Shown piece by piece: positions 4,113-28,087 of a stretch of 64,000 bases of DNA; the stretch's first letter is position 1, and each line of letters opens with the position of its first letter. Where the stretch lies: NCBI GenBank assembly GCA_028824015.1, contig JAPPFC010000002.1, forward strand, positions 62,001-126,000, read 5' to 3'. Source of the stretch: a bacterium (GTDB taxonomy: Bacteria; Actinomycetota; Acidimicrobiia; Spongiisociales; ZC4RG35). Both the position numbers and the translations under genes were made by a program. The notes under the pieces were generated by a model. That model was not told the origin of the DNA, made no database searches, and saw only the letters and a program-made list of their open reading frames with translations.

Positions 4113-4373
4113 ATGCCGGAAGTCGGAATCAGAGTGCTGCGGGACAATTTGAGCCGCTATATCAGCAGGGTACGGGAGGGTGAGGAGGTGATTGTGACCG
4201 ACCACGGTAAACCGGTGGCCCGAATTGCGCCCCTGGACCGACCGGGCCTGCTGGAGCGACTCATAGCCGAGGGGGTGGTTGCGCCTCCACTCATCAAAGA
4301 ACGTACCTTCCCGGGCAGTCGGGTAAAACCCGCAGCGCCCGTCTCCCCCCTGATTATCGAAGACCGGCGGTGA
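4113..4373 (+). CDS. Phd/YefM-type antitoxin
   Basis: An 86-residue protein that starts 'VGIRVLRDNLSRYISRVREG' and continues 'VIVTDHGKPVARIAPL'. This is the N-terminal DNA-binding fold of the prevent-host-death/YefM antitoxin family, with a C-terminal tail that normally wraps the partner toxin. The ATG follows an AGGGAAG-type ribosome binding site. Its stop overlaps the GTG of the downstream PIN toxin by 4 bp (GTGA), so the pair is translationally coupled. It should neutralise that nuclease and repress the operon through the palindrome over the -10 box. The N-terminus is a confident family match; the cognate pairing rests on gene order. Confidence 0.9.
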   Translation: MPEVGIRVLRDNLSRYISRVREGEEVIVTDHGKPVARIAPLDRPGLLERLIAEGVVAPPLIKERTFPGSRVKPAAPVSPLIIEDRR

Positions 4374-4804
4374 TCGCCTACTTCGATACCTCGGGAATCA
4401 TCCCGCTCCTCATTGACGAGCCTTTGTCCAAACTCGCGGAACGGATTTGGCAGCAGGCATCATGGGTGGCGAGTGCCCGCGTGTCCTACGTTGAGGCTCG
4501 TGCTGGCTTGGCGCGAGCTTGCCGGATGGAACGCATCTCGCCGACTGAGTTGAGGCAAGCTGTAGATGGTCTGGAAACCCTTCACCGTCAGATGCATCAT
4601 GTGGAGATCACTGCGGAATTGGTGGAAGAGGCGGGCCGGTTCGCCGAGGAGTTGGCGCTGAGAGCCTATGACGCGATCCAACTCGCCGCAGCGGCGTCTC
4701 TGGACATTGATGACTTGGTCGTGGTAACCGGCGATAGGCACCTTGCGGCAGCGGCGCAAACTCAGGGGCTTGCGTCCATCTCGGAATCGGGAACTTCGAC
4801 ATGA
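4370..4804 (+). CDS. PIN-domain toxin ribonuclease (VapC-like)
   Basis: A 144-residue single-domain PIN protein. The four acidic residues expected in a PIN metal site are visible: D6 in 'AYFDTS', E42 in 'YVEARA', D101 in 'AYDAIQLA' and D122 in 'VTGDRHL'. VapC toxins use this site to cleave tRNA or rRNA and stop translation. The GTG start overlaps the antitoxin stop. The residues are complete, so the toxin looks intact. The substrate cannot be predicted. The pair sits at the left edge of the island that carries the ubiquitin-like and restriction systems, a common setting for toxin-antitoxin modules that stabilise such regions. Confidence 0.9.
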   Translation: MIAYFDTSGIIPLLIDEPLSKLAERIWQQASWVASARVSYVEARAGLARACRMERISPTELRQAVDGLETLHRQMHHVEITAELVEEAGRFAEELALRAYDAIQLAAAASLDIDDLVVVTGDRHLAAAAQTQGLASISESGTST

Positions 4805-4941: not shown

Positions 4942-5340
4942 TTAGGCCCGTGTGTTCCTTGGGGCCGCATTGGGTTGGCGGGAGGTGGGCCTCAACCTGG
5001 ACCGGGGAATCCAAGTGACTCTTCCATTCCTGACCAAGAAATGGCAATCCCGCCCCCATCTTGTTTCATGAATACTGGGCCGTATCGAAAGTGGGCTGTA
5101 ACAAGTGATCCTCCACACAGGGTGTCGCTGGCTATCCAGGTTTAGCATGAGTCTGTGTCCTCTTCGGCAGGGGCAATCGAAGACGGCCCAAGTCTCGTTC
5201 CCTGGATCACCAACCAGGATCACCGCTCTTCGAGAGAGGTTGTCAGGGACCAAATCGCAAGCCTGGACACGTCCCGAGACACGCAATCTCCACCACGGCT
5301 TGAGTAACCGTTTCCACCACTTGATTCTCATCCCTGCCAT
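4942..5340 (-). CDS. DUF6527-type protein, fourth gene of the poly-ubiquitin-like operon
   Basis: A 132-residue basic protein with a probable metal-binding core: 'CPCRRGHRLMLNLD' (C-x-C and H), then 'WRITCYSPLSIRPSIHE' and 'RDCHFLVRNGRVTW'. I recognise this pattern as the DUF6527 family, which I know mainly as a small neighbour of ThiF/E1 and multi-ubiquitin genes. The first ATG (5340) has a GGAG five bases upstream and lies inside the end of the JAB-E1 gene; a second ATG at 5331 gives a classical ATGA overlap with the JAB-E1 stop. Either start couples it tightly to that gene. Its role is unknown; a Zn-binding adaptor or E3-like part is only a guess. Homology was judged by eye. Confidence 0.75.
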   Translation of the reverse strand: MAGMRIKWWKRLLKPWWRLRVSGRVQACDLVPDNLSRRAVILVGDPGNETWAVFDCPCRRGHRLMLNLDSQRHPVWRITCYSPLSIRPSIHETRWGRDCHFLVRNGRVTWIPRSRLRPTSRQPNAAPRNTRA

Positions 5341-6710
5341 ATCTGCTCCAAGAAAGGTGTTGTGACACCAAGACCCAGCTTGCCTGTCCTAGGATCGCAA
5401 TAGTGACCATCGCGTGGGCTTTGGTGGTTCGTAGACACTTCACGCTCGTGAACCCGCACGAGCACCTCCGAGGGAACGGGGTCCGGTCCGTATCGAATCA
5501 GACGTTCAAGTAGTTCACCAACAGCAGCGGCCGCGACCTGTGTGGTGAATGCCACTACTGCTGGTTCAACCCCAGGTAGAGCGGGGGCGTATCCTTCATC
5601 CACCAGTCTCTGGTGTTCATCTTGTGAGAGCATCTCGACATGAGCTTGTTGGAAGTCGATGCGTTCACGGCAGACTAGGCAGGCTAATCCTGGCGCAAGC
5701 ACAGTTACTCGCCCATTGATGCCGTTCAGGACGCCACCGCTGCCGCTGCTGAGTAACACGCCACAGTCAATGACAGGAGTCAGGAAGAAAGAGGCCACGC
5801 GGGATAATACGAGCCGGCCGGCATTGTCGTCCGTGCATCCGAAGATGATGTCGACATCCCCAAGGCGGCGGGCAGTAGCTTCCAGTGTGATTTTCTTGCG
5901 TTCGGTAGCCACCATGGCATCGGGGGCAATCCGACTCAGATGGGATGCAACGACGTTCACCTTCGGCTTTCCTATGTCTGCAGGAAACGAACCGTACACC
6001 CGGGTGACGTTGCTTTCCGTCAGAGTCTTAGGATCAAACAGGTGAAACCGGCGTACGCCAAGCCGCGTTAATTGCTCAGCGACTGCAGAACCCGTGCCCC
6101 CACACCCTACGATGGCAACGCTGAGATCGTTAAGGACCTCCTGAACCTCTCCCCCGAAGGCGCGTATGTTCCGATCAAATTGGCCACAGGGCTCGGTTGT
6201 AGCGTGAAGAGCGTTCTTGTATAAGGCCAACCGACCACCAGTTACCCACAAGCGGTCAATGTCGCTCCGCTTGCCACCTGCTTTGATGTGGCCTGCGAAA
6301 CGAAGTTGACCTGCTCTTTGAGCAATCACCACTGCCGCATAGAACGGGCTACCTGAGCGGATCTGAAATAGGTCAGCCAGTTCTTCATCTACGACCTTGT
6401 CGCGAACGCTGGGTTGGGGTGACGCCCTCTTACCCGGATGGGTATGCAACCAAATCGGTATAGCCTGATCTGCCTCTGCCTTTGCGAGGGCGGGCACGTA
6501 CCCGTGAGAGGCAATTCTGAGTCCCTCGGCTCCTCGAAAAAGATAAGCATCACTCGGAACCCATAGCACCTCTCGTACGAGGAGCCGGATGTCCCCACCG
6601 TGTGTCTCAACGAGTTGCGCTAGCAGGGTCCCCGCCGTCTCGACATCACTTGACGCCGCATCTAGCAACTCACCGGCAATGTGTTCTGGTATGACTAGGG
6701 TGACTCTCAT
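5328..6710 (-). CDS. JAB deubiquitinase-E1 (ThiF-like) fusion enzyme
   Basis: A 460-residue two-domain protein. The N-terminal half is a JAB/JAMM metalloprotease: E47, H89-x-H91 in 'WLHTHPG', S101 and D104 form the expected zinc site, though the spacing between 'HTHP' and 'SxxD' is eight rather than the more usual six residues. The C-terminal half (about 190-440) is a ThiF/E1 adenylating domain: nucleotide loop G202-C-G-G-T-G207, D226, N234/R237, K248/K250 and 'CTDDN' at 292-296. C344 and C347 in 'GLACLVC' are candidate thioester or zinc cysteines. Joining the processing and activating enzymes in one chain fits release of Ubl units from the poly-Ubl precursor and their adenylation. ATG overlaps the E2-like gene stop by 4 bp (ATGA). 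Confidence 0.92.
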   Translation of the reverse strand: MRVTLVIPEHIAGELLDAASSDVETAGTLLAQLVETHGGDIRLLVREVLWVPSDAYLFRGAEGLRIASHGYVPALAKAEADQAIPIWLHTHPGKRASPQPSVRDKVVDEELADLFQIRSGSPFYAAVVIAQRAGQLRFAGHIKAGGKRSDIDRLWVTGGRLALYKNALHATTEPCGQFDRNIRAFGGEVQEVLNDLSVAIVGCGGTGSAVAEQLTRLGVRRFHLFDPKTLTESNVTRVYGSFPADIGKPKVNVVASHLSRIAPDAMVATERKKITLEATARRLGDVDIIFGCTDDNAGRLVLSRVASFFLTPVIDCGVLLSSGSGGVLNGINGRVTVLAPGLACLVCRERIDFQQAHVEMLSQDEHQRLVDEGYAPALPGVEPAVVAFTTQVAAAAVGELLERLIRYGPDPVPSEVLVRVHEREVSTNHQSPRDGHYCDPRTGKLGLGVTTPFLEQIWQG

Positions 6711-7105
6711 CGCACCCCTGTGGGCAGACTTCTCTCAAGGTCTCTTCTAATCAAGGCCAAATAGCTTTCCAAACCATCGATCCCCGGCCGCCACTGACCT
6801 TGTGAGAAATGTCTAGACCACCGCTGCCACGTCCGGCCGCAATGCCACTCAACTACATCAGTAGCAGGCAGGGATCCTCCATCAACCCGATGAACCGGCG
6901 GATCAAACCACCACATATCAGGATGAACATCGGGGTATCCCGGGCTGAGCCGAACCAGGAGATCGGCCGTGTCCCGGTCGAATCCCGTTGGGAGGACCCA
7001 TCGTGATATCACGACGCAAGTCATTCCTGCCTCAAGGCTCACTTCGTAAGTGAGGTTTCTTTCAAGGAGAAAGGTCTCGTCGGCTTGGGGAAGACTCACC
7101 TGCAA
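6707..7105 (-). CDS. Prokaryotic E2-like protein (Prok-E2 family E type)
   Basis: A 132-residue protein matching the E2/UBC-like fold family linked to multi-ubiquitin genes. Signature segments are 'LLVRLSPGYPDVHPDMWWFD', 'EWHCGRTWQRWSRH' and 'QWRPGIDGLESYLALI'. In the related E2 superfamily a cysteine accepts the activated ubiquitin; here C89, in 'EWHCG', is the best candidate, C30 being the only other cysteine. The listed start is TTG, 10 bp inside the poly-Ubl gene; GTG at 7099 would give the GTGA overlap favoured in this genome and is equally likely. The gene is followed directly by the JAB-E1 fusion. The proposed role is transfer of the Ubl to an unknown target or partner. Confidence 0.85.
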   Translation of the reverse strand: MQVSLPQADETFLLERNLTYEVSLEAGMTCVVISRWVLPTGFDRDTADLLVRLSPGYPDVHPDMWWFDPPVHRVDGGSLPATDVVEWHCGRTWQRWSRHFSQGQWRPGIDGLESYLALIRRDLERSLPTGVR

Positions 7106-7626
7106 GTTGGCTTTCGGCTCACCTGTCGGACGGGATCCTTTAGCCCCGGGTTAATCGTGTTTGGCGCAGTGAAGAAGCGAAGACCGTCGTAAATCTTAAC
7201 AGTGTCGTCGTCCTTGATTTTCTTGTCAGGGTGGCCCGGGATCACCTGGAAGAGGTCGCGCTCGGGCGGAATGGGAGGCGAAGGCACCTGACGCAGCTGG
7301 GCTCCGCTCAGCTTTTCCTCGAACACCTCGTACTGCGTACGGTCAATCCGAATCTTGAAGGCTTTGGAAGGTGCAGTGAGGAATCCAAGACCGTCGTAGA
7401 TCTTAACAGTGTCGTCGTCTTTGATTTTCTTGTCAGGGTGGCCCGGGATCACCTGGAAGAGGTCGCGCTCGGGCGGAATGGGAGGCGAAGGCACCTGACG
7501 CAGCTGGGCTCCGCTCAGCTTTTCCTCGAACACCTCGTACTGCGTACGGTCAATCCGAATCTTGAAGGCCTTGGAAGGGTCGGGCTTCCTCGGATCGCCC
7601 TTGGGTTCGTGAACTCCGTTAGACAT
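7096..7626 (-). CDS. Poly-ubiquitin-like protein with two tandem beta-grasp domains (multi-ubiquitin family)
   Basis: From ATG 7626 the product is 176 residues: a 16-residue lead, two 69-residue Ubl domains, and a 22-residue tail. Each domain reads 'KAFKIRIDRTQYEV...LSGAQLRQV...FQVIPGHPDKKI...VKIYDGL', ending GLGFLTAP in the first and GLRFFTAP in the second, the usual end of multi-ubiquitin family domains. The two copies differ at only two residues. The JAB domain of the neighbouring fusion would be expected to cut after each unit. ATG 7626 is chosen because AAGGAG lies nine bases upstream and because the predicted transcript starts near 7661, which excludes the upstream GTG at 7665. First gene of a four-gene overlapping operon. 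Confidence 0.92.
   Translation of the reverse strand: MSNGVHEPKGDPRKPDPSKAFKIRIDRTQYEVFEEKLSGAQLRQVPSPPIPPERDLFQVIPGHPDKKIKDDDTVKIYDGLGFLTAPSKAFKIRIDRTQYEVFEEKLSGAQLRQVPSPPIPPERDLFQVIPGHPDKKIKDDDTVKIYDGLRFFTAPNTINPGLKDPVRQVSRKPTCR
7165..7578 (-). repeat. Tandem 207-bp duplication encoding the two Ubl domains
   Basis: Copies 7372-7578 (first domain) and 7165-7371 (second domain) are aligned at a period of exactly 207 bp, 69 codons. By eye I count about six substitutions, clustered at the end that encodes the domain C-terminus, plus scattered synonymous changes. The near identity indicates recent duplication or gene conversion. Copy number could change by unequal recombination. Confidence 0.95.
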
Positions 7627-7654: not shown

Positions 7655-7686
7655 ATACCAGTCACTAATGATACCAGTATACCATG
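7655..7686. promoter_or_regulatory. ATACC repeats, candidate operator for the RHH protein
   Basis: ATACCAGT occurs at 7655-7662 and 7671-7678, and ATACCATG at 7679-7686. The starts are 16 and 8 bp apart. They cover the transcription start, the -10 box and the spacer of the poly-Ubl promoter. RHH dimers of the Arc/CopG type often bind tandem sites of this size, so repression by the divergent RHH protein is a reasonable inference. Confidence 0.45.
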
Positions 7687-7736: not shown

Positions 7737-7952
7737 ATGCAACCATCAAAGGCTATGACCATTCGCTTGTCCGCTGAGCAGGCGGAGGCTCTCCACACCG
7801 TCGCGACTGTTGACGGCATGGCTGTCACTCAGGTCATCCGGGCTGCCATTGCACAGCACATAGAGCAACGGAAGGTTGACCCGGCATTTCAAGACGGGCT
7901 CCGTGAACGGATAGAGCGGGCACAACTCCTGCTTGTAAGCGAGAAGAAGTAG
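7737..7952 (+). CDS. Ribbon-helix-helix (Arc/CopG-like) DNA-binding protein
   Basis: A 71-residue protein. 'AMTIRLSAEQAEALHTVATV' gives the beta-strand and first helix, and 'GMAVTQVIRAAIAQHIEQRK' the second helix of a ribbon-helix-helix dimer; a basic and acidic helical tail follows. Such proteins bind DNA as dimers through the paired strands. No toxin gene follows it; the next gene is convergent. It is divergent from the poly-Ubl operon and shares its control region, including a palindrome of opposed -35 boxes and three ATACC repeats, so it is the best candidate regulator of that operon. No ribosome binding site is visible, consistent with a leaderless transcript. Confidence 0.8.
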   Translation: MQPSKAMTIRLSAEQAEALHTVATVDGMAVTQVIRAAIAQHIEQRKVDPAFQDGLRERIERAQLLLVSEKK

Positions 7953-8015: not shown

Positions 8016-8912
8016 TTAGCTCCGACGTCCGTCAATGGGCAACGAGGCATGTTCGGACTCATACAGCTTCTGGCCATCCTTGATGGCCAAGCGCTGGAGG
8101 CAGTACAGTCGCCAGAACAGTTGCCAGTTCGCTGACCGCGGATCCAGGTACTCGACCCTCAGCCCGATACGTGGATCCTGGGCGTCCTCCCACGAAATCA
8201 TCTGTGAATGAGACTGCCACCGACTCGTATCTAGCAACTCGATCGGTGTCATAGTCCAAGGGCCACCATTCCGAAACATCCCGCGCTTCAGGAGGTTTTC
8301 AGCAGCGTGCCGAGCCCGATCTTTGACTGCTTGGCACCACTTGACAGTAGTGGGATCAAGTTTCCCAAGCATTACGCGAGATACGGCATTTGCCGGGTCA
8401 CCCTTAAGAATGGCCGAGTGCTCGTCGTAAGCATCGAGGTAGTTCTGAACGGAACGCCATACATAGTGTCCGGTGCTGTCGGGGAATAGTATCTGCGGGT
8501 CGATTGGCCCAAGCTCCGATGTATCACTCATTAGCACCCTGTCAGCACCGAGGACCATAAGTGTGCCAGCGCTCTTGGCGTAGTCCGGCACCACAATCTG
8601 TAACTCAGCGGTGCCGACCCTTCTCCTGACGATAGAAATCAGCTTTTCGGCTACGTCAACATCGCCTCCGCTGGTGTGCAGTAACAAATCTAGGTTTTCG
8701 TTATTCGGCACATGGTGAAGGATGTCCACAAACCCCACAGTGTCATCACGATCTATCCTGCATCCATCCCCAGATACATAACAAACCAGGCGCCGACCGG
8801 TCGCTTTCTGGATTCGCTTTATGAGATCCTGTCGCCCATACCGTGCAGAGTGAGTTGCCTGGAACAGCGGCGTCTTGGCAAAGTTAGGCTCAGTAACGCC
8901 AACCTCCGCCAT
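8016..8912 (-). CDS. SDH_sah-family serine protease (ClpP/crotonase fold)
   Basis: A 298-residue protein from ATG 8912, chosen because the family usually begins shortly before 'TPLFQATHSARYGRQDLI'; an upstream GTG at 9002 would add 30 atypical residues. Core motifs are 'LDLLLHTSGGDVDVAEKL', the oxyanion region, and 'VVPDYAKSAGTLMVLGADRV' with S114 as probable nucleophile, then 'SELGPIDPQ'. This matches the family named serine dehydrogenase proteinase, which shares the ClpP fold. No transmembrane segment is seen, so it is cytoplasmic. It lies between the poly-Ubl system and the type I restriction operon, on the same strand as both. A link to Ubl-tagged proteins is possible but unsupported beyond position. 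Confidence 0.85.
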   Translation of the reverse strand: MAEVGVTEPNFAKTPLFQATHSARYGRQDLIKRIQKATGRRLVCYVSGDGCRIDRDDTVGFVDILHHVPNNENLDLLLHTSGGDVDVAEKLISIVRRRVGTAELQIVVPDYAKSAGTLMVLGADRVLMSDTSELGPIDPQILFPDSTGHYVWRSVQNYLDAYDEHSAILKGDPANAVSRVMLGKLDPTTVKWCQAVKDRARHAAENLLKRGMFRNGGPWTMTPIELLDTSRWQSHSQMISWEDAQDPRIGLRVEYLDPRSANWQLFWRLYCLQRLAIKDGQKLYESEHASLPIDGRRS

Positions 8913-9091: not shown

Positions 9092-9838
9092 TTATTTGAC
9101 AGCGGTGCCTAGCCAGATACTTCTGCCGATAGAGGCAAGAGCAGATTTCTCTGACTGGTAGCCCGGCATCAATCGTGCGACGATGGACCAGAACTTGGGG
9201 GTGTGGTTGGCCTCGCGGAGGTGAGCGAGTTCGTGTACTAGGACGTAGTCGATGAGGCTTGGAGGAAGTTGGAGGGTGGCCCAGTGGATATTGATTCGTT
9301 GGGGACCTGTGTGCGGACGCGCTGAACCCCACCGGTAGCCGAGGTCGCGGACTTCCACGCCAACTGACTGTTCTCCCAGGCGGGCAGCCCAGGGACAGAT
9401 CCTCTTTTGGAGCCACTTCCTGCCCACATCGGTGTACCACTGACGCATTGCATTGGCACCCTGATCCGCCTCCGCGGCAGGGAGGTGGAACCGGCCCCGA
9501 TCGAGGCGCAATCCGGTCCCCTCGGGGGTGAGGGTTAATCGGTAGCTGCGGCCGAGATAAGCGAACCCTTCTCCTTCGACAAACTTCTTGACAATCGGTG
9601 GACCCGTAAGAGCATCTTTCTCGACCAGCTTGCGATAGACCCACTGGCGCTTGGCAGCAACGAATCTCATAACTCGTTCGACTGTGACGGCGGGTGGAGC
9701 CTTGATAACCAGCGATGCGTCGCGTTCTACAATGATCTCGATTGTCTTGCCTCGGCGGGGCGGGGCGACCTTGAACACAAGATCTCCTACTACCAACTCG
9801 GGGAGATCGTGGAGGGCAAGCGCTGCGGTGGGGGTCAT
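9092..9838 (-). CDS. YgjP-like (DUF45, M48-type) metallopeptidase in the restriction operon
   Basis: A 248-residue protein with the zinc-protease motif H202-E-L-A-H206 in 'VLVHELAHLREANHTPKFW', with H212 in the usual 'NHTPKFW' follow-on. 'RWGSARP' (W170) and the N-terminal 'RRGKTIEIIVERDASLVIKAP' are typical of the YgjP/DUF45 family. Members are commonly the last gene of type I restriction-modification operons. Its ATG overlaps the hsdR stop by 4 bp (ATGA), so it is translated with that gene. The substrate is not known; cleavage or control of the restriction complex is a plausible guess from position. Confidence 0.88.
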   Translation of the reverse strand: MTPTAALALHDLPELVVGDLVFKVAPPRRGKTIEIIVERDASLVIKAPPAVTVERVMRFVAAKRQWVYRKLVEKDALTGPPIVKKFVEGEGFAYLGRSYRLTLTPEGTGLRLDRGRFHLPAAEADQGANAMRQWYTDVGRKWLQKRICPWAARLGEQSVGVEVRDLGYRWGSARPHTGPQRINIHWATLQLPPSLIDYVLVHELAHLREANHTPKFWSIVARLMPGYQSEKSALASIGRSIWLGTAVK

Positions 9839-12800
9839 GACAACCGGTGCTGGTTGGCCTTGGCGAGAGCGACGAGTTCGACAGACAGCTCATCAAGGCT
9901 CGCGAATGGGAACAGGTCACTGTCGTCGAGTGTCCGTTTGATCGCTTTACGAAGGTCATCTTGCTTGGTGGCGTTGTCCCAGAAGCCCACCACACTGATG
10001 ACTCGGCGGACCTGGGCGACAAGTTCCACGGTAAGTTCGATCAGACGCTCAGTGGCTTCCGACACGGAACTCGCGACCCTCTCGACCATCTGGCCATAGA
10101 ACGGAAGTTCCGTGGAGGGATCCAGCCCCGTATCATCTTCGTCGGAGCGGCCAGTTTTGATCTCGTCGATCACTCCCTTGAATTCGAATGCGATCTGGTC
10201 CCACCTATCTTCCAGCCGATCCAGGATCTCGTCGATTCTCTCCGACAAGTTCCGGTAATAAGCGGGGTCTTCGTCAACATGGGTGCGAATGTGATGCCGT
10301 ATGGCGTGTTCCATCTCTGATGCCATAGCCCGCTCCGAATCCATCTGTTGGACGTGAAAGTTGAAGGTCGGATCGGTGATCTTCAAAGGCTGGATCTTCT
10401 GGCTGAGGTCGAGAACTGTGATGTGCTGGTCGATCAGACGCCGGACCTTTTCCTTGTACTTGTGGGGGTCAAAGTCCCCATCGGGTGTGTCGCGGTAACG
10501 GCGCCGGGTGCGGATCTGGATCTCTCCGAAGAGGTTGACATCTTCTACGAACGGAAGGGCTTCTGGCCTTGGTAAAACCGTGTCGAAGGTGGTGAAGAAG
10601 GTTCGTAGTGCAACATCGAACTCTGCCCGGAGTCGTTCGTCGGCCAGCAGTTGAACGCATTGCTCGATCGCTTCGTTGGTCGCGGCTGGCTCGACACCTC
10701 GCTGGACGAAGATCTGTTTAACACGTTGGCGCTGCGGTTCAAGCTTTTCGATTTCGGTGGTGAGCGACCGTAGCGCTCCGTCGACGTCGGGATCGACGAT
10801 GTCGCCATCAGCGTTGGCATAGGCGGCGAGAGCCTGGGTGAGTTGAGCAGACACGCCGTAGTAATCGACCACGAGTCCGTAGGACTTCTTTGGGGCGGTC
10901 CGGTTGACGCGAGCTATCGCCTGGAGCAGTTCAGCCTCTTGGATCAATCGGTCGAGATAGAGAACCTGCGCTTGCGGTGCGTCGAACCCGGTGAGCAACA
11001 TCGACTTGACGATCAACAGTGCAAGTGGGCTGTGTTTGTCGTTGGCGGACCCGAGTGGAAGTTTGAAGCCGTCGATGTGTATCTGTTGACGCTGTTTGGC
11101 CGTCCATGGCGCGTAATGCGGCGGATCGTTGTGGTCTCCGGAGATCACCGGCGCGAATTCAAGGCTCCGCAATAGTTCAATCTGGGAAGTCGTGTTCTCC
11201 GTTGACGACATGTGGCTTGGTGTGATGCCGGAACTGTCGAACGGATATGGGTCTCCTCGTTCGATCTCTTCAATGAGTTCATCACGTGCCTTGTTCAGGG
11301 CATCGAAATAACGGAGACAGGCCTTCCGACTGGTAGCAACAATCATGCCCTTGAATCCGTCGGGCATCACGGTGGTGAGGTAGTGTCGGAGGACATCCTT
11401 AGCTTTCGCCTCAATCAACTCCGGAGCCTGGAGCACCTGCATGGTTGTGGCGTACTTCCGCTGAAGAGTCTGTCTCTGGTCGTCAGTAAGCGGGGCGAAC
11501 CACCGGTAGAAAACCGTGTCCATCCTGGATGCTCCCTTGACGGCCGCATCGGTGGTGCGGCCCTCGTAGAAGATCGGCACAGTCGAACCATCCGCCTCCG
11601 AGTCAGCAAGCGTGTACCGGTCCAAATACCCACCGAAGATGTCACGCGTTCTCTTCCGCTTGCCCATGATTATCGGAGTGCCCGTAAACCCAATCCGGGC
11701 CGCATTCGGCAGGGCGGCCATCAGATTGGCGTGCAGTATCGACCCATGAGATCGGTGGGCCTCGTCGACCATCACCAGTATCGACTCCGACGGGTTCAAC
11801 GTGCCGTACATCTCCTCTCCCGCCGCACCTTCGCTGCCACCAGGTGACGTGTCCCGGTACTTCTGGATCATCACCATCACCACACCCGGACCGGGCCGAC
11901 CAACCAATCTCCGAACATCCCCACCCCTGCGGGCAACGTACACGGTCTCCCCAACCAATGCCGCCGTCTCCCGGAGTTGTCGCTCAAGAGCGGTCCGATC
12001 AGTCACCAGGACAATCTTGAACCTTCTCAGATCGGGATGGCTTCGCATCGCCCTCACCAGAAATACCATCGTCAGGCTCTTGCCGGATCCCTGAGTGTGC
12101 CAGACGATCCCTCCGCGGCGATCGGTCTCCCCGTCTTCCGCCTTGGTGGGGCCGGTAAGCAACCGTCGCATCGCTTTCTGGACACCCCGGTACTGCTGAT
12201 AACGGCTGACAATCTTGACCGTACGACCTGGGCCGATATCCATGAACACCGTGAAGTGCCTCACGATGTCCAGCAACCGCTGAGGCGCCAACATTCCAGC
12301 CGCCAACAACTCCTGCTGGGTAACCGCTTCAACCGGTTTGCCCAAGGAATCGGCTACATCCTCAACGGAATAGGGGAAGGGATCCTTCCAAGCCATGTAA
12401 TGCTCTGGCAAAGCGGTGAATGTTGCCACTTCGGCTCGCTCACCAGTGGTAGCCACCGTGAACTGATTTGTCCAGAACAACTGCTCAGCACCCTCAGGAA
12501 CCTCGGTACGCCGCTGGTTGGCATATCGGTGGATCTGATTGATCGCTTCCGCTATCCCGGAGGGGGTACCGGGAGGCTTGGCCTCGATCACCACCAACGG
12601 AATCCCGTTAACGAACAATGTCACATCAGGCCGAATGTTCGGAGCCCTACCGGCTGTTGCAATCGGGAACTGCGACACCGCAAGGAAGTCATTGGCTTTC
12701 CAGTTGTCCCAATCGATGTAATCAATGGTCCGATCCCGACCACCGTCCCACCCTTCCATTCCGGCAACCGTGACCCCGCGAAGCAAAAGATCGGTCGACA

Positions 12801-13083
12801 GCCGGTTCGCCTCCAACAACTTGGCCCCCGCTGGCATCGAAGTCAACTCCGCAACCGCCCCTTTGATCCGGATGTCGTCAAGCCACGGCAGGTCGTTAGG
12901 CCCTGGATTAATCTTCACCAACGCCCCCTTGAGCCGATCTTCAAGAAGCACATCGCGATCCGACAGCCGGGCCACGGTGTCGGTGCCCTGGCGCTCAGAC
13001 CAGACCAACGTTTCCCAGCCGAGCATTCCCAAGTGCTCTAACAACGGCCCCTCGACTTTCTCCCACTCCGGCCCCCAAGTCAT
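9835..13083 (-). CDS. hsdR: Type I restriction enzyme subunit R
   Basis: A 1082-residue motor and nuclease subunit. The N-terminal endonuclease site is seen as D153 in 'RPDVTLFVNG' and E167-A-K169 in 'LVVIEAK'. The translocase has Walker A 'TQGSGKS' (330-336), DEAH at 440-443 in 'MVDEAHRSHG', and later SF2 motifs such as 'GFTGTPI', 'KSMLLTGFDAP' and 'QAIARVNR'. It would pump DNA past the complex and cut unmodified DNA at a distance. The ATG overlaps the hsdS stop (ATGA) and its own stop overlaps the metallopeptidase start. Length and motifs look complete, so the system is probably functional. Confidence 0.96.
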   Translation of the reverse strand: MTWGPEWEKVEGPLLEHLGMLGWETLVWSERQGTDTVARLSDRDVLLEDRLKGALVKINPGPNDLPWLDDIRIKGAVAELTSMPAGAKLLEANRLSTDLLLRGVTVAGMEGWDGGRDRTIDYIDWDNWKANDFLAVSQFPIATAGRAPNIRPDVTLFVNGIPLVVIEAKPPGTPSGIAEAINQIHRYANQRRTEVPEGAEQLFWTNQFTVATTGERAEVATFTALPEHYMAWKDPFPYSVEDVADSLGKPVEAVTQQELLAAGMLAPQRLLDIVRHFTVFMDIGPGRTVKIVSRYQQYRGVQKAMRRLLTGPTKAEDGETDRRGGIVWHTQGSGKSLTMVFLVRAMRSHPDLRRFKIVLVTDRTALERQLRETAALVGETVYVARRGGDVRRLVGRPGPGVVMVMIQKYRDTSPGGSEGAAGEEMYGTLNPSESILVMVDEAHRSHGSILHANLMAALPNAARIGFTGTPIIMGKRKRTRDIFGGYLDRYTLADSEADGSTVPIFYEGRTTDAAVKGASRMDTVFYRWFAPLTDDQRQTLQRKYATTMQVLQAPELIEAKAKDVLRHYLTTVMPDGFKGMIVATSRKACLRYFDALNKARDELIEEIERGDPYPFDSSGITPSHMSSTENTTSQIELLRSLEFAPVISGDHNDPPHYAPWTAKQRQQIHIDGFKLPLGSANDKHSPLALLIVKSMLLTGFDAPQAQVLYLDRLIQEAELLQAIARVNRTAPKKSYGLVVDYYGVSAQLTQALAAYANADGDIVDPDVDGALRSLTTEIEKLEPQRQRVKQIFVQRGVEPAATNEAIEQCVQLLADERLRAEFDVALRTFFTTFDTVLPRPEALPFVEDVNLFGEIQIRTRRRYRDTPDGDFDPHKYKEKVRRLIDQHITVLDLSQKIQPLKITDPTFNFHVQQMDSERAMASEMEHAIRHHIRTHVDEDPAYYRNLSERIDEILDRLEDRWDQIAFEFKGVIDEIKTGRSDEDDTGLDPSTELPFYGQMVERVASSVSEATERLIELTVELVAQVRRVISVVGFWDNATKQDDLRKAIKRTLDDSDLFPFASLDELSVELVALAKANQHRLS

Positions 13084-14342
13084 GTTGCTGCCGTCCGAAT
13101 ACGGCCCGAGAATAGATCGGAAGCAAGCCCCGTTCGCAACCTCCGCAACTTAGCAAGTTCAACTCTATTGTGGTGTATCGAACTGTCGACTGTGTCAAGG
13201 ATCTCCGCAATCCGCCGCTGCTCCAGCAACGGTGGGAGGGGAAGCCTAAACCGTCGAATGATCGCTCCCGAAATATTCGGTTGGGTCGTCTGAGCCGCCA
13301 GTCGTTCTAGGCTAGCGCGGCGGAACGAGAGGGCATGCGCGAGGTAATCGGGGTCGCATCGGAAAGGAGGAACCAGCGCCGCAATGGCTTGATTGGTTGC
13401 CATCGGAGAGAGAAGCGTCTTGGTCACTCCGATCGTTCCGTACATAGTCACCAGAACTGTCCCAGCGGGGAAGATCCTCGCTGCACTCTCCTCAAGGGCA
13501 AGGTCCGTGATCGACAGTTCGGCCTGATCCACAAACCGACTAATAGATCTGGTGATATCGTCAATCTTGAGGAACGGCGTGCCGCAATCCGCGTAATAGC
13601 GGGGGTCCCCAGCCGTGGGGGTACCTCCGCTTGAGACTAAAGCGACCAGTTCCTCGATCGACCGAGACTCCCAGTCAGTCATAACCGAGGTCCCTGACGT
13701 GCTGGTAGAGACCGGCGACGACAAGGCCCCGTTCGGCTTCGAGTTTGTGGAGGTTACCCTAGCGCTGGATCCATTGAGAAGATCAGCCGCAAGTCCGGCA
13801 CGTATAAAGCGCCGCTTGGCAATGACACGTTTGGTGGCCTCAACGGTCTCGTTGAGCGTGTCGAGCACCTTGGCAATTCGCCGCTGCTCCTCTAACGGTG
13901 GCACAGGCACAAGCCATCTCACCAGCTTTGATCTCGGTAAGTGGCCAATGCTTGTCCTCCCTGTCATTGCCCTTAGCAATCCCGCAACGGCAGCGAACTC
14001 AATGTAGTGGCGCATGAATCCCTGGTCTATGATGCCAGTCCCACGCAACCGGTGAATGGCGTTCTGGAAGTAGCACTCTGGCAGCTCATCTGACCACAAT
14101 GCTGCCCTGCCAACCTCACCGCCTTCACAGACAAGAAGGTCACCTGCTCGCAATCGATACCGCTCTCGCTCTGCCAAATTGAAGTGCATCGTTCGGAGGT
14201 CGTCAATGACAATTTGTCCCCATTGGACATTGCGATTTGCGAGGTATTGATACTGATCGCCATGCTCAGAGCCTGCACTGAGCGTCTTACCCAGTTGAAC
14301 CTCGAAGGCCTTGCCAAGTGGCACCTTCCGCCAATTATCCAT
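13080..14342 (-). CDS. hsdS: Type I restriction-modification specificity subunit S
   Basis: From ATG 14342 the product is 420 residues. It has the two-TRD layout of HsdS: each half ends with a conserved helical region, '[20 protein letters not shown]...AADLLNG' about residues 170-210 and '[20 protein letters not shown]...ASDLFSG' near the C-terminus. The two variable domains each read one half of a split DNA site that cannot be deduced here. ATG 14342 overlaps the hsdM stop by 8 bp and gives '[10 protein letters not shown]', a normal HsdS beginning; longer readings extend only into hsdM. The halves are similar in the conserved helices but differ in the TRDs, so the recognition site is probably asymmetric. 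Confidence 0.93.
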
Positions 14343-16737
14343 ACCCCAGCTCCTTGAACTGCTGGTCGAGACGGGCTGCGGCCTTGTCCCGTTCTGCTTC
14401 AACGTCTCCGAGGGTGGTGCCGTATTTGTTGGCGAGGTTGCTGTACCAACCAAGAGTATTGCGTTCGACGGTGGCGAAGTGATCTGTTACGAGTCTCTCC
14501 ATTCGGCCCAAGAGCACACCGATTGCCTGGGTAGGGGCTTCGGCCGCCGGCATAGTGTCGAGGGTTTGCCGGGCTTTAGTGAGCAGTAAGGCATCAACGG
14601 CTTTGAGTTGCTTTTTAATCTTGGTGCGGGCCGACTTCAGGGTCTTGATCTCGGCCGGAGTGAGAGGGCCAGCGTTGTTGGAGGCTTCGGCGGCCTTAAT
14701 CTGTGCATCGAGGCGGGCGTGTTCGGCTGTGAGGGTGGTTTGTTTGGCTAGTTGGCACGCCGCAAGGAGTTTGATGGCGGGCTGGTCGGGCAGGCTGGGA
14801 GCCTTTTTGTCGTCTTTGCTGGCTTCGGCGGTGGTGAGCCAAGCTTCGATGACTGCTTTCCAGCCTCGGGTAGCGGCGGTCTGGAGTTCGTGGCGAGTCT
14901 GTTCCCACCAAGTCGCGGCCATGCCAGCAGCGGCGAAGTGGTCCATGCCAGTAGGGACCATGCGGGCCGTGAAACCCTTGACCAGTTGGTGGCGTTGGCC
15001 AACGAGAATGCCATTGCGTGGTAGGAGGCGGAGCATTGGTTCGACGGTGTCGGCCCACCAGCGCGGCCAGGGACTGTTCGTGGCCTTGTCATTGACCGCG
15101 CGGCCAATAGTGCGGTACGCATCTTCCCGCTCTGCCGAGCCATTGGCTGAGTGGCGCCACTCGGCGTAACAGTCACCCCGATCGACAAACAGGAGGTCGG
15201 CTTCGAGCCCGGCTTCTTCCAGCAGGTCTTTAGCGTCCTCAATCTCCACTATTGGTACGCCACCATGGAGATGAGCTCGGACATCCTGGGGTTCGGGTGG
15301 TGGAGCGCTATCCGCGTACCGCCGGATGTTGCAGTTGAAGTCGTTGTCGGCTAGTTCGTCGAGGGTGACGACCTTGGCGAAGCCCTCGACATCGGCGAAG
15401 TCTCGGTATGTGGCGGTGATCTTCTCTTCGTCGCGTGGGCGGAGATGGTTCTGGGCGCGACCTTCGCCGTAGTCGCGGTCGGCGTTTATAAACAGCACCT
15501 TGCCCTTCCGTTCGGGAGGTTTGGAGCCTTTGGCTCGCAGGATCAATATGGCGGCAGGGATGCCGGTGCCGTAGAAGAGGTTTGGGCCCAAACCGATCAC
15601 CGTGTCAATGAGGTCGTCTTCAATGATCGCCCGCCGGATGCTCCCTTCAGTGCCACTCCGGAACAGCACACCGTGGGGCATGACTGTGGCGAGGATCCCA
15701 TCAGACTTGAGGACGGCCAGCATGTGCTGGAGGAACATGAGGTCGGCTTTCTTGGCGCCTTCGGGTGTGTAGCCGTAGCGGAACCGTTCGGTGTGAGTAA
15801 GTGAGGCTTTGTCGTAGTTCTGGCTGAACGGGGGGTTCGTGATCACCCGGTCGAAACGAACTAACTCACCGTCACGGACATGCTCAGGGTTGGTGATAGT
15901 GTCTTCGTTGCGGAGGTCAGCGTCTTTGATGCCGTGAAGCAGCATGTTCATCTTGGAGATTGACCAGGTGGTCCCGTTGTTCTCTTGGCCGGCAAGAACT
16001 AGATTGGTGGGATCACCACCACTGTCAGAAACGTGGTTTCGGGCGTATATCAACATCCCGCCAGATCCTGAGCATGGGTCGTAGATAGCCATACCCTCCT
16101 TCGGATCGACAAGGCGCACCATCAGCTGCACGACAGGGCGGGGTGTGTAAAACTCGCCTCCCTTCTTACCCGCCGAGTCGGCAAAGTCCCGGATCAGATA
16201 CTCGTATGCTGCGCCAAGCAGGTCGGGGAACTCGAAATCCTCGTTGCGGAGCCGGTACTTGGAGAAATGATCGATGAGGTCGCGCCACTTCTTGTCCGAA
16301 ACTGTTGTTCTACCTACCCGCCGGTTGAAGTCGATGTGCTGTAGGACACTCTCCAGAGTGGGATTGCTCTCCTCAAGCTTGCCGAGAGCCCTGTTCAGTC
16401 CGTCGCCCACCTGATGGTGGAGATCGTCGCGAATGTTCGACCAGCGGGCCTCGGGTGGCACGAAAAAAGCGTCTTCATAGAAATCGGGGTCATCAGCTCG
16501 CTGATGGGCTTCTGCCAATGAACGTCCCCGAGTCAACTGATCCTCGATCACCAGCCGACGCTCCTGTTCGAACACATCGCTCGCCCTCTTCAAGAACAAT
16601 GCCCCGAAGATGTACTCCTTGAACTCCGACGCGTCCATCTTTCCGCGCAAGATGTCGGCAGCGGCGAATAGATGGCGCTCTAGTTGGGGCAGTGTGAGCA
16701 CGAGGACAACGATAGAGCATCGAAGTGACAGCCCCAT
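14335..16737 (-). CDS. hsdM: Type I restriction-modification methyltransferase subunit M, with long C-terminal extension
   Basis: An 800-residue N6-adenine methyltransferase. '[20 protein letters not shown]' and '[11 protein letters not shown]' are the HsdM N-terminal helical domain; the SAM motif '[10 protein letters not shown]' is at 220-229 and the catalytic 'NPPF' at 301-304. The catalytic core ends around residue 480, and the remaining 300 or so residues are helical, with a coiled-coil-like stretch near 660-710, making it longer than the common 500-residue form. ATG 16737 follows GGAAGA; the extra residues before '[10 protein letters not shown]' look hydrophobic and atypical, so GTG 16701 is an alternative start. 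First gene of hsdM-hsdS-hsdR-metallopeptidase, all overlapping. Confidence 0.93.
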
Positions 16738-26574: not shown

Positions 26575-26769
26575 TTAGAAGAGTCCGCTGACCATTTCAG
26601 CCAGCACCGCCAGGCCGATGGCTCCTCCCACCCACTTCATCCACCGAATGTCAATGCGAATCGCATCCAGGTCTGTTCGAATTTCGTCCAAAACCATGGC
26701 CAGAGCATTTGTCTGGGGTCCGGTGAACCCCGCCTCCCGGAGGGCCGATCGTTGGCTAGCTCTCGTCAT
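26575..26769 (-). CDS. Small TM protein, paralogue 1 of 3
   Basis: A 64-residue protein: N-terminal 'SQRSALREAGFTGPQTNALA', a short helix 'RTDLDAIRIDIRWMKW' and one C-terminal membrane span 'VGGAIGLAVLAEMVSGLF'. It shares both ends with the two neighbouring genes but lacks most of the central coiled coil. The layout is like DUF1640-type coiled-coil/TM proteins. ATG is preceded by GGGAGG. Function unknown. Confidence 0.75.
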   Translation of the reverse strand: MTRASQRSALREAGFTGPQTNALAMVLDEIRTDLDAIRIDIRWMKWVGGAIGLAVLAEMVSGLF

Positions 26770-26894
26770 ACAACCTCCCGTTTCATATTCTCTTCTTCGA
26801 TGATAGGCGGACTGGCCCTACCAAGTGCGGCCGAAAAGGGGGACGGATATGAGAGGTCGAACAGGCGGGCTCCCAGCGATGCTGGGCCGATGAC

Positions 26895-27212
26895 CTATAA
26901 GAAGAGTCCGCTGACCAGTTCTGCCAGCACCGCCAGGCCGATGGCCCCTCCTATCCATTTCATCCACCGCACGTCAATGCTGAGCGCGGTCAGGTCACCG
27001 CGGATCGCGGTCAGGTCACCGCGGAGTCCTGCCTGGTCACCGCGGAGTTCTGCCAGGTCACCGCGGAGTTCTGCCAGGTCGCCCTTCAGTTCTTCCTTGA
27101 CTGCCAGCAAGTCTTCCTTGGTTGCCAGCGGTTCCAGAGCCATGGCCAGAGCATTTGTCTGGGGTCCGGTGAATCCCGCCTCCCGGAGGGCCGATCGTTG
27201 TGCTGCTTCCAT
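26895..27212 (-). CDS. Small coiled-coil TM protein, paralogue 2 of 3 (expanded)
   Basis: A 105-residue protein with the same N-terminal segment ('QRSALREAGFTGPQTNALAM') and C-terminal membrane span ('IGGAIGLAVLAELVSGLFL') as its neighbours. Between them are 'ATKEDLLAVKEELKGD' and about five heptad-type repeats of the form L-R-G-D-L-x-x, giving a coiled coil. 'ATKEDL' followed by heptads and a terminal TM is seen in DUF1640-like proteins. GGGAGGTGG precedes the ATG. Probably oligomeric and membrane-bound; function unknown. Confidence 0.8.
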   Translation of the reverse strand: MEAAQRSALREAGFTGPQTNALAMALEPLATKEDLLAVKEELKGDLAELRGDLAELRGDQAGLRGDLTAIRGDLTALSIDVRWMKWIGGAIGLAVLAELVSGLFL

Positions 27213-27341
27213 CTTGCCACCTCCCGTGTGCAGATTCCTTCATCTGATGATAGGCGGACCGGCCCTACCAAGTGCGGCCGAAAAGGGGGACGGATATGAG
27301 AGGTCGAACAGGCGGGCTCCCAGCGATGCTGGGCCGATGAC

Positions 27342-27596
27342 CTATAAGAAGAGTCCGCTGACCAGTTCTGCCAGCACCGCCAGGCCGATGGCCCCTCCTA
27401 TCCATTTCATCCACCGCACGTCAATGCTGAGCGCGGTCAGGTCACCGCGGATCTCTGTCAGGTCGCCCTTCAGTTCTTCCTTGACTGCCAGCAAGTCTTC
27501 CTTGGTTGCCAGCGGTTCCAGAGCCATGGCCAGAGCATTTGTCTGGGGTCCGGTGAATCCCGCCTCCCGGAGGGCCGATCGTTGTGCTGCTTCCAT
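27342..27596 (-). CDS. Small coiled-coil TM protein, paralogue 3 of 3
   Basis: An 84-residue version of the preceding paralogue, identical over the N-terminal 45 residues and the C-terminal 30, but with 21 fewer residues, exactly three heptads. ATG 27596 follows GGGAGGTGG; a longer open frame reaching into the doxX-like gene is spurious. The near identity to paralogue 2 shows recent tandem duplication. Confidence 0.8.
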   Translation of the reverse strand: MEAAQRSALREAGFTGPQTNALAMALEPLATKEDLLAVKEELKGDLTEIRGDLTALSIDVRWMKWIGGAIGLAVLAELVSGLFL

Positions 27597-27676
27597 CTTG
27601 CCACCTCCCGTGTGCAGATTCCTTGACCTGATGATAGACGGAACATCCCTGCTATCTATGGCGTAGGGGGTGGAGG

Positions 27677-28087
27677 TCAGAGGTCGAACAGGCGGGCTCC
27701 CAGTTCCCAGCCCATGTCGGCGCCGGTGGCCGACATTGCGAAGAGGACCAATCCGGCGCCGGCGATGGAGACGTTCTTCATGAACATCGACATCTCGACG
27801 GTCCTGGTCGGCTCCTCGTCGGACCAGAAGTGATGGACCATGAAGGCGGCCACCAGCACGTACACCGCCAGCCCGAGGACGGCCAGATCTATCCACACCC
27901 CGAGGATGACCCCGAGGCCGCCCACGGCGATGAGCACACCCGAGATCCGAGCCAGCAATCCGGCAGCGGGAACTCCCCGAGACGCCGCGTACCCGGCGGT
28001 GGCGTCGGGTTGGGCAAGGTGACCTATTCCCGCTCCCAGGAATATCAAGGAAAACAGAACCCTACCGATTATCAACAAAGCCTCCAT
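27677..28087 (-). CDS. DoxX-family membrane protein
   Basis: A 136-residue protein with four hydrophobic helices: 'LIIGRVLFSLIFLGAGIGHL', 'ISGVLIAVGGLGVILGVW', 'LAVLGLAVYVLVAAFMVHHF' and 'SIAGAGLVLFAMSAT'. The first helix with 'GHL' and the third with 'HHFW' are typical of DoxX/DoxD-like proteins, some of which couple to thiosulfate or disulfide redox chemistry; no substrate can be assigned here. Its 3' end has been copied twice into the downstream repeats. Confidence 0.85.
   Translation of the reverse strand: MEALLIIGRVLFSLIFLGAGIGHLAQPDATAGYAASRGVPAAGLLARISGVLIAVGGLGVILGVWIDLAVLGLAVYVLVAAFMVHHFWSDEEPTRTVEMSMFMKNVSIAGAGLVLFAMSATGADMGWELGARLFDL

What the first reader, a model, noticed from the sequence alone, without database searches (positions are those of the whole stretch)
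4942..7626. Compact poly-ubiquitin-like conjugation operon: poly-Ubl, E2-like, JAB-E1 fusion, DUF6527
Four overlapping genes encode a Ubl precursor, an E2-like protein, a fused deubiquitinase/activating enzyme, and a small Cys/His protein. The families are those described computationally for prokaryotic ubiquitin-like systems, and related bacterial Ubl operons act against phages. The layout suggests a self-contained cycle: JAB releases Ubl units, E1 activates, E2 transfers. Target, trigger and the role of the DUF6527-type protein are unknown.
Basis: partly seen in the sequence, partly recalled or inferred. Interest (0 to 1): 0.88.

Follow-up and report, generated by a model that had tools for sequence, protein, structure and literature searches.

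The report
Bacterial ubiquitin-like operon with ClpP-like protease
The four genes are a known bacterial ubiquitin-like tagging system ('Bub'), but here and in about fifty relatives from at least seven phyla it comes with a dedicated ClpP-fold protease gene and, nearly always, its own repressor gene and operator, which suggests that protein tagging is wired to a protease in an inducible stress or defence unit.

Summary
In detail: four overlapping minus-strand genes (multi-Ubl, Prok-E2_E, JAB-E1 fusion, DUF6527). They are not a new system. They match operon type 6e of Iyer et al. 2006 and the Bub pathway, whose Citrobacter BubB and BubCD have solved structures. Several mechanistic details in the finding fail. 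E2 C89 is not conserved; the invariant motif is WQRWSRH. E1 C344/C347 look like a zinc knuckle. The two Ubl copies have no glycine junction, so JAB should cut only once, after the final INPG.

The SDH-family ClpP-fold protease gene at 8016-8912 and the RHH gene at 7737-7952 belong to the module. In 57 related loci, SDH is present in 54 (at least seven phyla) and a divergent RHH gene in 52. A tandem TGGTATCN operator lies between RHH and BubA. More distant Bub operons in the sample lack this protease subfamily. In two SDH-less operons the fifth slot holds an anti-phage dCTP deaminase, so that slot looks like an effector position.

Best reading: an RHH-repressed Bub module with a dedicated protease effector, a new variant of a known kind. 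Conjugation, targets, trigger and anti-phage activity are untested.

The parts
7096..7626 (-). BubA-like multi-Ubl (176 aa). Two 69-aa beta-grasp copies (7372-7578 and 7165-7371, 96.6% identical DNA), then PNTINPG (last Gly at 7144-7146) and a 15-aa tail
   Evidence: Pfam Multi_ubiq E=4e-20; repeat comparison; INPG in 56 of 56 core relatives
6707..7105 (-). BubB-like E2-fold protein (132 aa). Invariant WQRWSRH motif; Cys89 not conserved
   Evidence: Pfam Prok-E2_E E=1e-38; Citrobacter BubB 9eae_C E=9e-15; alignment
5328..6710 (-). BubCD-like JAB (N-terminal)-E1/ThiF fusion (460 aa). JAMM residues E24, H89, H91, S101, D104; putative zinc knuckle C344, C347, H436, C438
   Evidence: ThiF E=2e-34; Citrobacter BubCD E=1e-25; conservation
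4942..5340 (-). BubE-like DUF6527 protein (132 aa). Invariant W51, C56, P57, P74, W76, P88, S89, H100
   Evidence: Pfam E=4e-16; alignment A3; all-beta AlphaFold2 model, pLDDT 85.5, no PDB fold match
7670..7684 (-). Predicted RHH operator in the bubA promoter region: tandem TGGTATCN at 8-bp spacing (TGGTATACTGGTATC)
7737..7952 (+). Ribbon-helix-helix (CopG/DUF6290-like) regulator, divergent from bubA (71 aa)
   Evidence: DUF6290 E=1.5e-5, just under its cut-off; divergent RHH next to BubA in 52 of 57 core loci
8016..8912 (-). SDH-family ClpP-fold serine protease (298 aa; ATG at 8912). Invariant S114 in the AKSAG motif, D138, H235
   Evidence: Pfam SDH_protease E=1.6e-14; 49-52% identical to the fifth gene of alphaproteobacterial Bub operons; present in 54 of 57 core loci; model pLDDT 94.7 matches SppA/ClpP/1510-N
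9092..16737 (-). Adjacent genes, not part of the module: YgjP-like metallopeptidase (9092-9838) and type I restriction-modification genes hsdR (9835-13083), hsdS-like (13080-14453), hsdM-like (14335-16737)
   Evidence: Pfam and PADLOC for YgjP and HsdR; hsdS and hsdM judged from the translated ORFs only

Best explanation
The locus is a Bub (operon type 6e) ubiquitin-like conjugation module of a subtype that carries its own effector protease. Proposed working order: the RHH protein sits on tandem TGGTATCN boxes at the bubA promoter and holds the unit off. When it is released, the JAB half of BubCD trims the 15-residue tail of BubA after INPG. The E1 half adenylates that glycine, and BubB, without a conserved cysteine, helps pass it to a target. 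JAB, and perhaps BubE, reverse or tune the modification. The SDH protease is the fifth, effector component: its activity or substrate choice is set by BubA conjugation, either to the protease itself or to proteins it then cuts, so an alarm becomes proteolysis of host or phage proteins. Shown here by sequence: component identity, intact motifs, co-inheritance, conserved operator, effector-slot swap. Inferred: repression by RHH, tail processing, conjugation, role of BubE, dependence of the protease on conjugation, defence role.
For: SDH is present in 54 of 57 core-clade loci, directly after BubE on the same strand in 53 of the 56 loci other than the window; RHH is present and divergent in 52 of 57. 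SDH-first check: the seven plasmid records with at least 45% identity are the seven core-type Bub plasmids by accession, and the next match falls to about 30%. In 396 genomes of the window's phylum the two with Bub-type SDH (337-455 bits) are the two with core BubCD; the next match is 170 bits. SDH and BubCD divergences correlate, r=0.78 against a permutation maximum of 0.20. Residues S114, D138 and H235 are conserved and the model has the ClpP/SppA fold. In L020 and L032 the fifth gene overlaps BubE and is an anti-phage dCTP deaminase (NF041025, 414.8 and 389 bits, cut-off 400), nested in the SDH clade with SDH-bearing L031 as sister. Operator boxes occur in 46 of 53 loci and are not found in L020, L032, L034 or L048, which lack RHH.
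Against: In the window the SDH gene is not at the 3' end of the operon but upstream of the RHH gene, and no operator-like site lies before it, so co-regulation here is unproven. No experiment known to me shows conjugation, protease activity or phage protection for this clade, and PMC13373217 says Bub has not been shown to protect against phage. A Citrobacter Bub locus has no fifth gene, so the core does not need one everywhere. One of the two deaminases scores just under its curated cut-off. Association does not show that the protease acts on tagged proteins.
Confidence: 0.45

Rival explanations
1. Ubiquitin-proteasome-like degradation: BubA conjugation marks proteins, and the SDH ClpP-fold protease recognises BubA-tagged proteins and degrades them.
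For: Dedicated, co-inherited ClpP-fold protease with conserved active-site residues. A second distant Bub lineage (Rhizobium plasmids) has a separately acquired SDH-type gene after DUF6527.
Against: No AAA+ unfoldase was seen as a regular module member. Two relatives replace SDH with a dCTP deaminase, which cannot degrade tagged proteins. The Rhizobium SDH genes are short (182-202 aa) and may be decaying.
Confidence: 0.25
2. SDH is a processing or deconjugating protease for BubA, acting beside JAB.
For: It is encoded with the Ubl pathway, and the BubA tail needs trimming after INPG.
Against: The JAMM motif of BubCD is intact, distant Bub operons in the sample lack this SDH, and the deaminase swap in L020 and L032 would leave such a step unfilled although their BubA still ends in INPG plus a tail.
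Confidence: 0.1
3. SDH is an independent defence gene that hitch-hikes in the same mobile cassette without biochemical coupling.
For: The locus lies next to a type I restriction-modification system and relatives have Fic genes beside the RHH gene (24 of 57 loci). In the window SDH is detached from the operon.
Against: Bub-type SDH was not found apart from Bub in the sets searched; its fixed position after BubE in at least seven phyla argues for a functional unit.
Confidence: 0.12
4. The module is a general stress-response protein modification system rather than a defence system.
For: PMC13373217 raises this possibility for Bub, and other Bub operons are under DNA-damage regulators (CapW, CapH+CapP, CapK+CapS).
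Against: Replacement of SDH by an anti-phage dCTP deaminase, patchy distribution (2 of 396 genomes in the phylum), plasmid carriage, and a restriction-modification neighbour are typical of defence genes.
Confidence: 0.2

Closest known systems
Bub (bacterial ubiquitination-like) pathway, Citrobacter BubB/BubCD structures 9ea4, 9ea5, 9eae, 9eav; Ye et al. 2026, doi 10.1038/s41594-025-01696-1 (paper not held; cited through PMC13373217)
   Same: Same four components: multi-Ubl, E2-fold protein, JAB-E1 fusion, DUF6527 protein. BubB and BubCD are the best PDB hits (E=9e-15 and 1e-25).
   Different: A Citrobacter braakii Bub locus has two upstream genes that look like CapK/CapS, an apparent BubA-BubB fusion and no fifth gene. 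The window type has separate A and B, an RHH regulator with a tandem operator, and an SDH protease; its E1 keeps the CxxC pair that Citrobacter BubCD lacks.
Operon type 6e of Iyer, Burroughs and Aravind 2006 (PMC1779556)
   Same: PolyUbl, E2/RWD-like protein without the conserved Cys, JAB-E1 fusion, metal-binding protein.
   Different: The passages read mention no ClpP/SDH protease, RHH regulator or operator for this type.
Bil (BilABCD) and type II CBASS Cap2/Cap3
   Same: Bacterial Ubl or target conjugation with E1, E2 and JAB enzymes, with anti-phage function reported in the literature.
   Different: Those use separate JAB and E1 genes (Bil) or an E1-E2 fusion with a nucleotidyltransferase (CBASS). 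Here JAB is fused to E1, the E2 lacks a conserved Cys, and DUF6527 and SDH are present.
SDH/SppA/1510-N (NfeD) group of ClpP-fold serine proteases
   Same: Fold and the AKSAG nucleophile motif; profile match to PH1510-N E=2.7e-6; Foldseek matches SppA, ClpP, 1510-N.
   Different: The Bub-linked subfamily is separate from solitary SDH proteins (at least 337 bits against at most 170) and was found only with Bub.
Anti-phage dCTP deaminase (NF041025)
   Same: Occupies the same fifth position after BubE in L020 and L032.
   Different: Unrelated enzyme; replaces SDH rather than resembling it, and comes without the RHH gene.

Membership tests
Bub / type 6e operon | Multi-ubiquitin (beta-grasp) protein | tested here: met
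   PF14452 E=4e-20, two copies
Bub / type 6e operon | E2-fold protein lacking the catalytic Cys of classical E2s | tested here: met
   PF14462 E=1e-38; no conserved Cys in 74 aligned sequences, WQRWSRH invariant where covered
Bub / type 6e operon | JAB domain fused to the N-terminus of an E1-like domain | tested here: met
   JAMM residues conserved; match to Citrobacter BubCD over residues 30-407
Bub / type 6e operon | DUF6527 putative metal-binding protein downstream | tested here: met
   PF20137 E=4e-16
Bub / type 6e operon | Ubl conjugation activity | not testable with these tools
   Needs biochemistry
Bil (BilABCD) | Separate JAB (BilC) and E1 (BilD) genes and an E2 with catalytic Cys | tested here: not met
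   JAB and E1 are one ORF; E2 has no conserved Cys
Type II CBASS | CD-NTase gene with a Cap2 E1-E2 fusion | tested here: not met
   The four operon genes and the SDH gene have no CD-NTase match; E2 and E1 are separate ORFs
SDH/ClpP-fold serine protease | Family profile match and ClpP/SppA fold | tested here: met
   PF01972 54.1 bits against cut-off 31.3; Foldseek to SppA/ClpP/1510-N
SDH/ClpP-fold serine protease | Conserved catalytic Ser and partner residues | tested here: met
   S114, D138, H235 invariant in 41 sequences; assignment as a triad is inferred
SDH/ClpP-fold serine protease | Proteolytic activity | not testable with these tools
   Needs biochemistry
Anti-phage defence system | Protection against phage | not testable with these tools
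   Only context: RM neighbour, deaminase swap, patchy distribution

The most novel reading that the evidence does not exclude
A bacterial ubiquitin-like system that is directly coupled to proteolysis: BubA conjugation delivers proteins to, or switches on, a dedicated ClpP-fold SDH protease, under an RHH repressor. This would be a bacterial counterpart of ubiquitin-directed proteolysis built on a Bub pathway, with the protease slot replaceable by other effectors.
Probability: 0.35. Interest if true: 0.88.

Novelty: new variant of a known kind. Interest (0 to 1): 0.62.

Why it matters
Iyer et al. 2006 called the links between bacterial Ubl systems and protein degradation unclear. A Bub clade with a fixed, subfamily-specific ClpP-fold protease in at least seven phyla makes that link directly testable. 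The swap of the protease for an anti-phage dCTP deaminase in the same slot is a hint at what Bub is for, and offers a way to find further effectors by looking at the fifth slot. The conserved operator gives a handle on the inducer.

Tried and rejected
(1) BubE fold: AlphaFold2 model pLDDT 85.5, but Foldseek gave no match below E=1.9 and VIA-align no Z of 5 or more, so no function is inferred from fold; a PDB profile search also found nothing. (2) Phage and viral links: no full-length BubCD in phage records and no hit in viral contigs; phage SDH relatives are only 26-31% identical. (3) C89 as nucleophile: rejected by conservation. (4) Poly-Ubl cut into monomers: rejected by missing glycine junction and single INPG. 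(5) Second lineage: Rhizobium plasmid Bub operons have an SDH-type gene after DUF6527 that groups with solitary SDH, not with the core SDH (100/99 and 99/95 support), but the three genes are short, so this is kept as suggestive only. (6) An intermediate SDH in G066 (170 bits) is not next to Bub. (7) Papers: the Bub papers (PMC12885553, PMC12145246) and the Bil paper PMC11476048 are not held, so whether they mention an SDH gene could not be checked; literature searches brought up none that does. (8) PADLOC gave no convincing match for BubA, BubB or BubE.
Full report
OBSERVATION. The four ORFs exist as described and overlap head to tail on the minus strand. Pfam assigns Multi_ubiq, Prok-E2_E, ThiF and DUF6527, all above curated cut-offs. 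The JAB half of the fusion is not reported by Pfam, but its JAMM residues E24, H89, H91, S101 and D104 are conserved in the core clade and in the outgroups.

KNOWN FAMILY. The best PDB sequence matches are Citrobacter BubCD (E=1e-25) and BubB (E=9e-15). The layout is operon type 6e of Iyer et al. 2006 (PMC1779556). PMC13373217 describes 544 Bub operons and says they have not been shown to protect against phage. The four-gene finding on its own is therefore a new member of a known kind.

In 74 aligned E2 proteins no cysteine is conserved. Window C89 is Leu in most relatives, and WQRWSRH is invariant where the region is covered (YQRWSRH in two distant cases, L071 and Citrobacter). Iyer et al. 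had noted that this E2 lacks the Cys. S96 of the motif is a candidate nucleophile only; from memory, unverified here, the Bub paper proposes chemistry other than the usual Cys thioester. C344/C347 pair with H436/C438 here and with CxxC in outgroups, so they look like a zinc knuckle, and Citrobacter BubCD lacks them. The two BubA copies are 96.6% identical over 207 nt, have no glycine at their junction, and INPG occurs once per polypeptide in all 11 two-Ubl proteins checked, so the mature tag should be a two-domain unit.

A LARGER MODULE. The closest annotated BubCD relatives (53-57% identity) lie on alphaproteobacterial plasmids, with an RHH gene divergent from bubA and a fifth gene of about 300 codons after BubE. 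That fifth gene is homologous to window 8016-8912 (49-52% identity), an SDH-family ClpP-fold protease by Pfam and by its model (pLDDT 94.7; SppA, ClpP and 1510-N among the structural matches). A genome scan gave 68 loci. With plasmid loci and the window, a core clade of 57 loci was examined: BubB, BubCD and BubE in 57, BubA in 56, SDH in 54, RHH in 52. SDH follows BubE on the same strand in 53 of the 56 loci other than the window. By record title the SDH-bearing loci come from Alpha-, Beta- and Gammaproteobacteria, Actinobacteria, Chloroflexi, Spirochaetes, Acidobacteria, Gemmatimonadetes and Planctomycetes, i.e. at least seven phyla; many are metagenome bins, so single assignments may be wrong. 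The more distant Bub loci L010-L012 and L064-L080 have no SDH of this type beside the operon (L071 has only a 22-bit match about 2 kb away on the other strand).

SPECIFICITY. Searching from the SDH side, the seven plasmid records at 45% identity or more are the same accessions as the core-type Bub plasmids, and the next match is about 30%. In 396 genomes of the window's phylum, Bub-type SDH and core BubCD occur in the same two genomes; the second, L083, again reads RHH, A, B, CD, E, SDH. In 297 genomes of a Bradyrhizobium relative's family the only hit was the query genome. SDH and BubCD distances correlate at r=0.78 against a permutation maximum of 0.20.

EFFECTOR SLOT. Three core loci lack SDH. 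Two of them, L020 and L032, carry an anti-phage dCTP deaminase overlapping BubE (NF041025, 414.8 and 389 bits; cut-off 400). They group together next to SDH-bearing L031 (0.96 local support for the trio, 0.72 for the pair), so the deaminase most simply replaced SDH once. L020 has a CapK/CapS-like pair upstream, L034 and L048 an HTH plus ImmA/IrrE pair, kinds of regulator known for other Bub operons (PMC13373217; PMC4963859). A distant Bub lineage on three Rhizobium plasmids has an SDH-type gene after DUF6527 that groups with solitary SDH; those genes are short and may be decaying.

OPERATOR. Between RHH and bubA lies a TTGTCA-like -35 followed by two or three TGGTATCN boxes at 8-bp spacing. 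The 15-base pattern with up to 2 mismatches occurs there in 46 of 53 loci. Only 7 hits lie elsewhere in 1.02 Mb, and 3 of those are the operators of L031 and L042 just outside the limits used. The RHH-less loci L020, L032, L034 and L048 have none. The window site is at 7670-7684. Binding by RHH is inferred.

WINDOW PECULIARITY. Here the SDH gene lies upstream of the RHH gene instead of after BubE, between the module and a YgjP-hsdR-hsdS-hsdM block. No operator-like site precedes it, so its co-regulation is open.

MECHANISM AND CONFIDENCE. The components, their conservation and their association are shown (about 0.9 that SDH and RHH belong to the module). That SDH is an effector controlled by, or acting with, BubA conjugation is inferred (0.45). 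Degradation of tagged proteins in the strict sense is a rival at 0.25. I know of no bench test of any step for this clade.

Noticed in passing
L005, L006, L007, L008 and others: 24 of 57 core loci have a Fic gene beside the RHH gene, 21 of them with a small antitoxin-like partner (VbhT/Fic-like by NCBIfam). The window has no such gene next to its RHH gene.
   Followed up: partly
L084 (G003:C7), about 5381-7499: Another genome of the window's genus has a different Ubl/E2/E1 operon (E2 reads WLQLSWH) with a long ORF resembling an ATPase upstream.
   Followed up: no
L090 and L091: DUF6527 proteins next to E1-like proteins without a recognised JAB half, with an ImmA/HTH pair in L090: possibly further Ubl-related variants.
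   Followed up: no
L010 and L095: Diverged Bub operons with a phosphotransferase-like gene (TCAD9/APH in L010) between BubCD and BubE.
   Followed up: no
L078, L079, L011: A conserved ORF (243 aa in L078) of no known family follows BubE in these diverged operons: another candidate fifth-slot protein.
   Followed up: no
L009 (Microbacterium plasmid): SDH and BubCD reading frames are broken into pieces, so this copy looks degraded.
   Followed up: no
window 4113-4804: Phd/YefM antitoxin and PIN-domain toxin pair just downstream of BubE, opposite strand.
   Followed up: no
window 26752-27896: A stretch with two near-identical copies of a small coiled-coil/membrane protein gene (read on the minus strand).
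   Followed up: no
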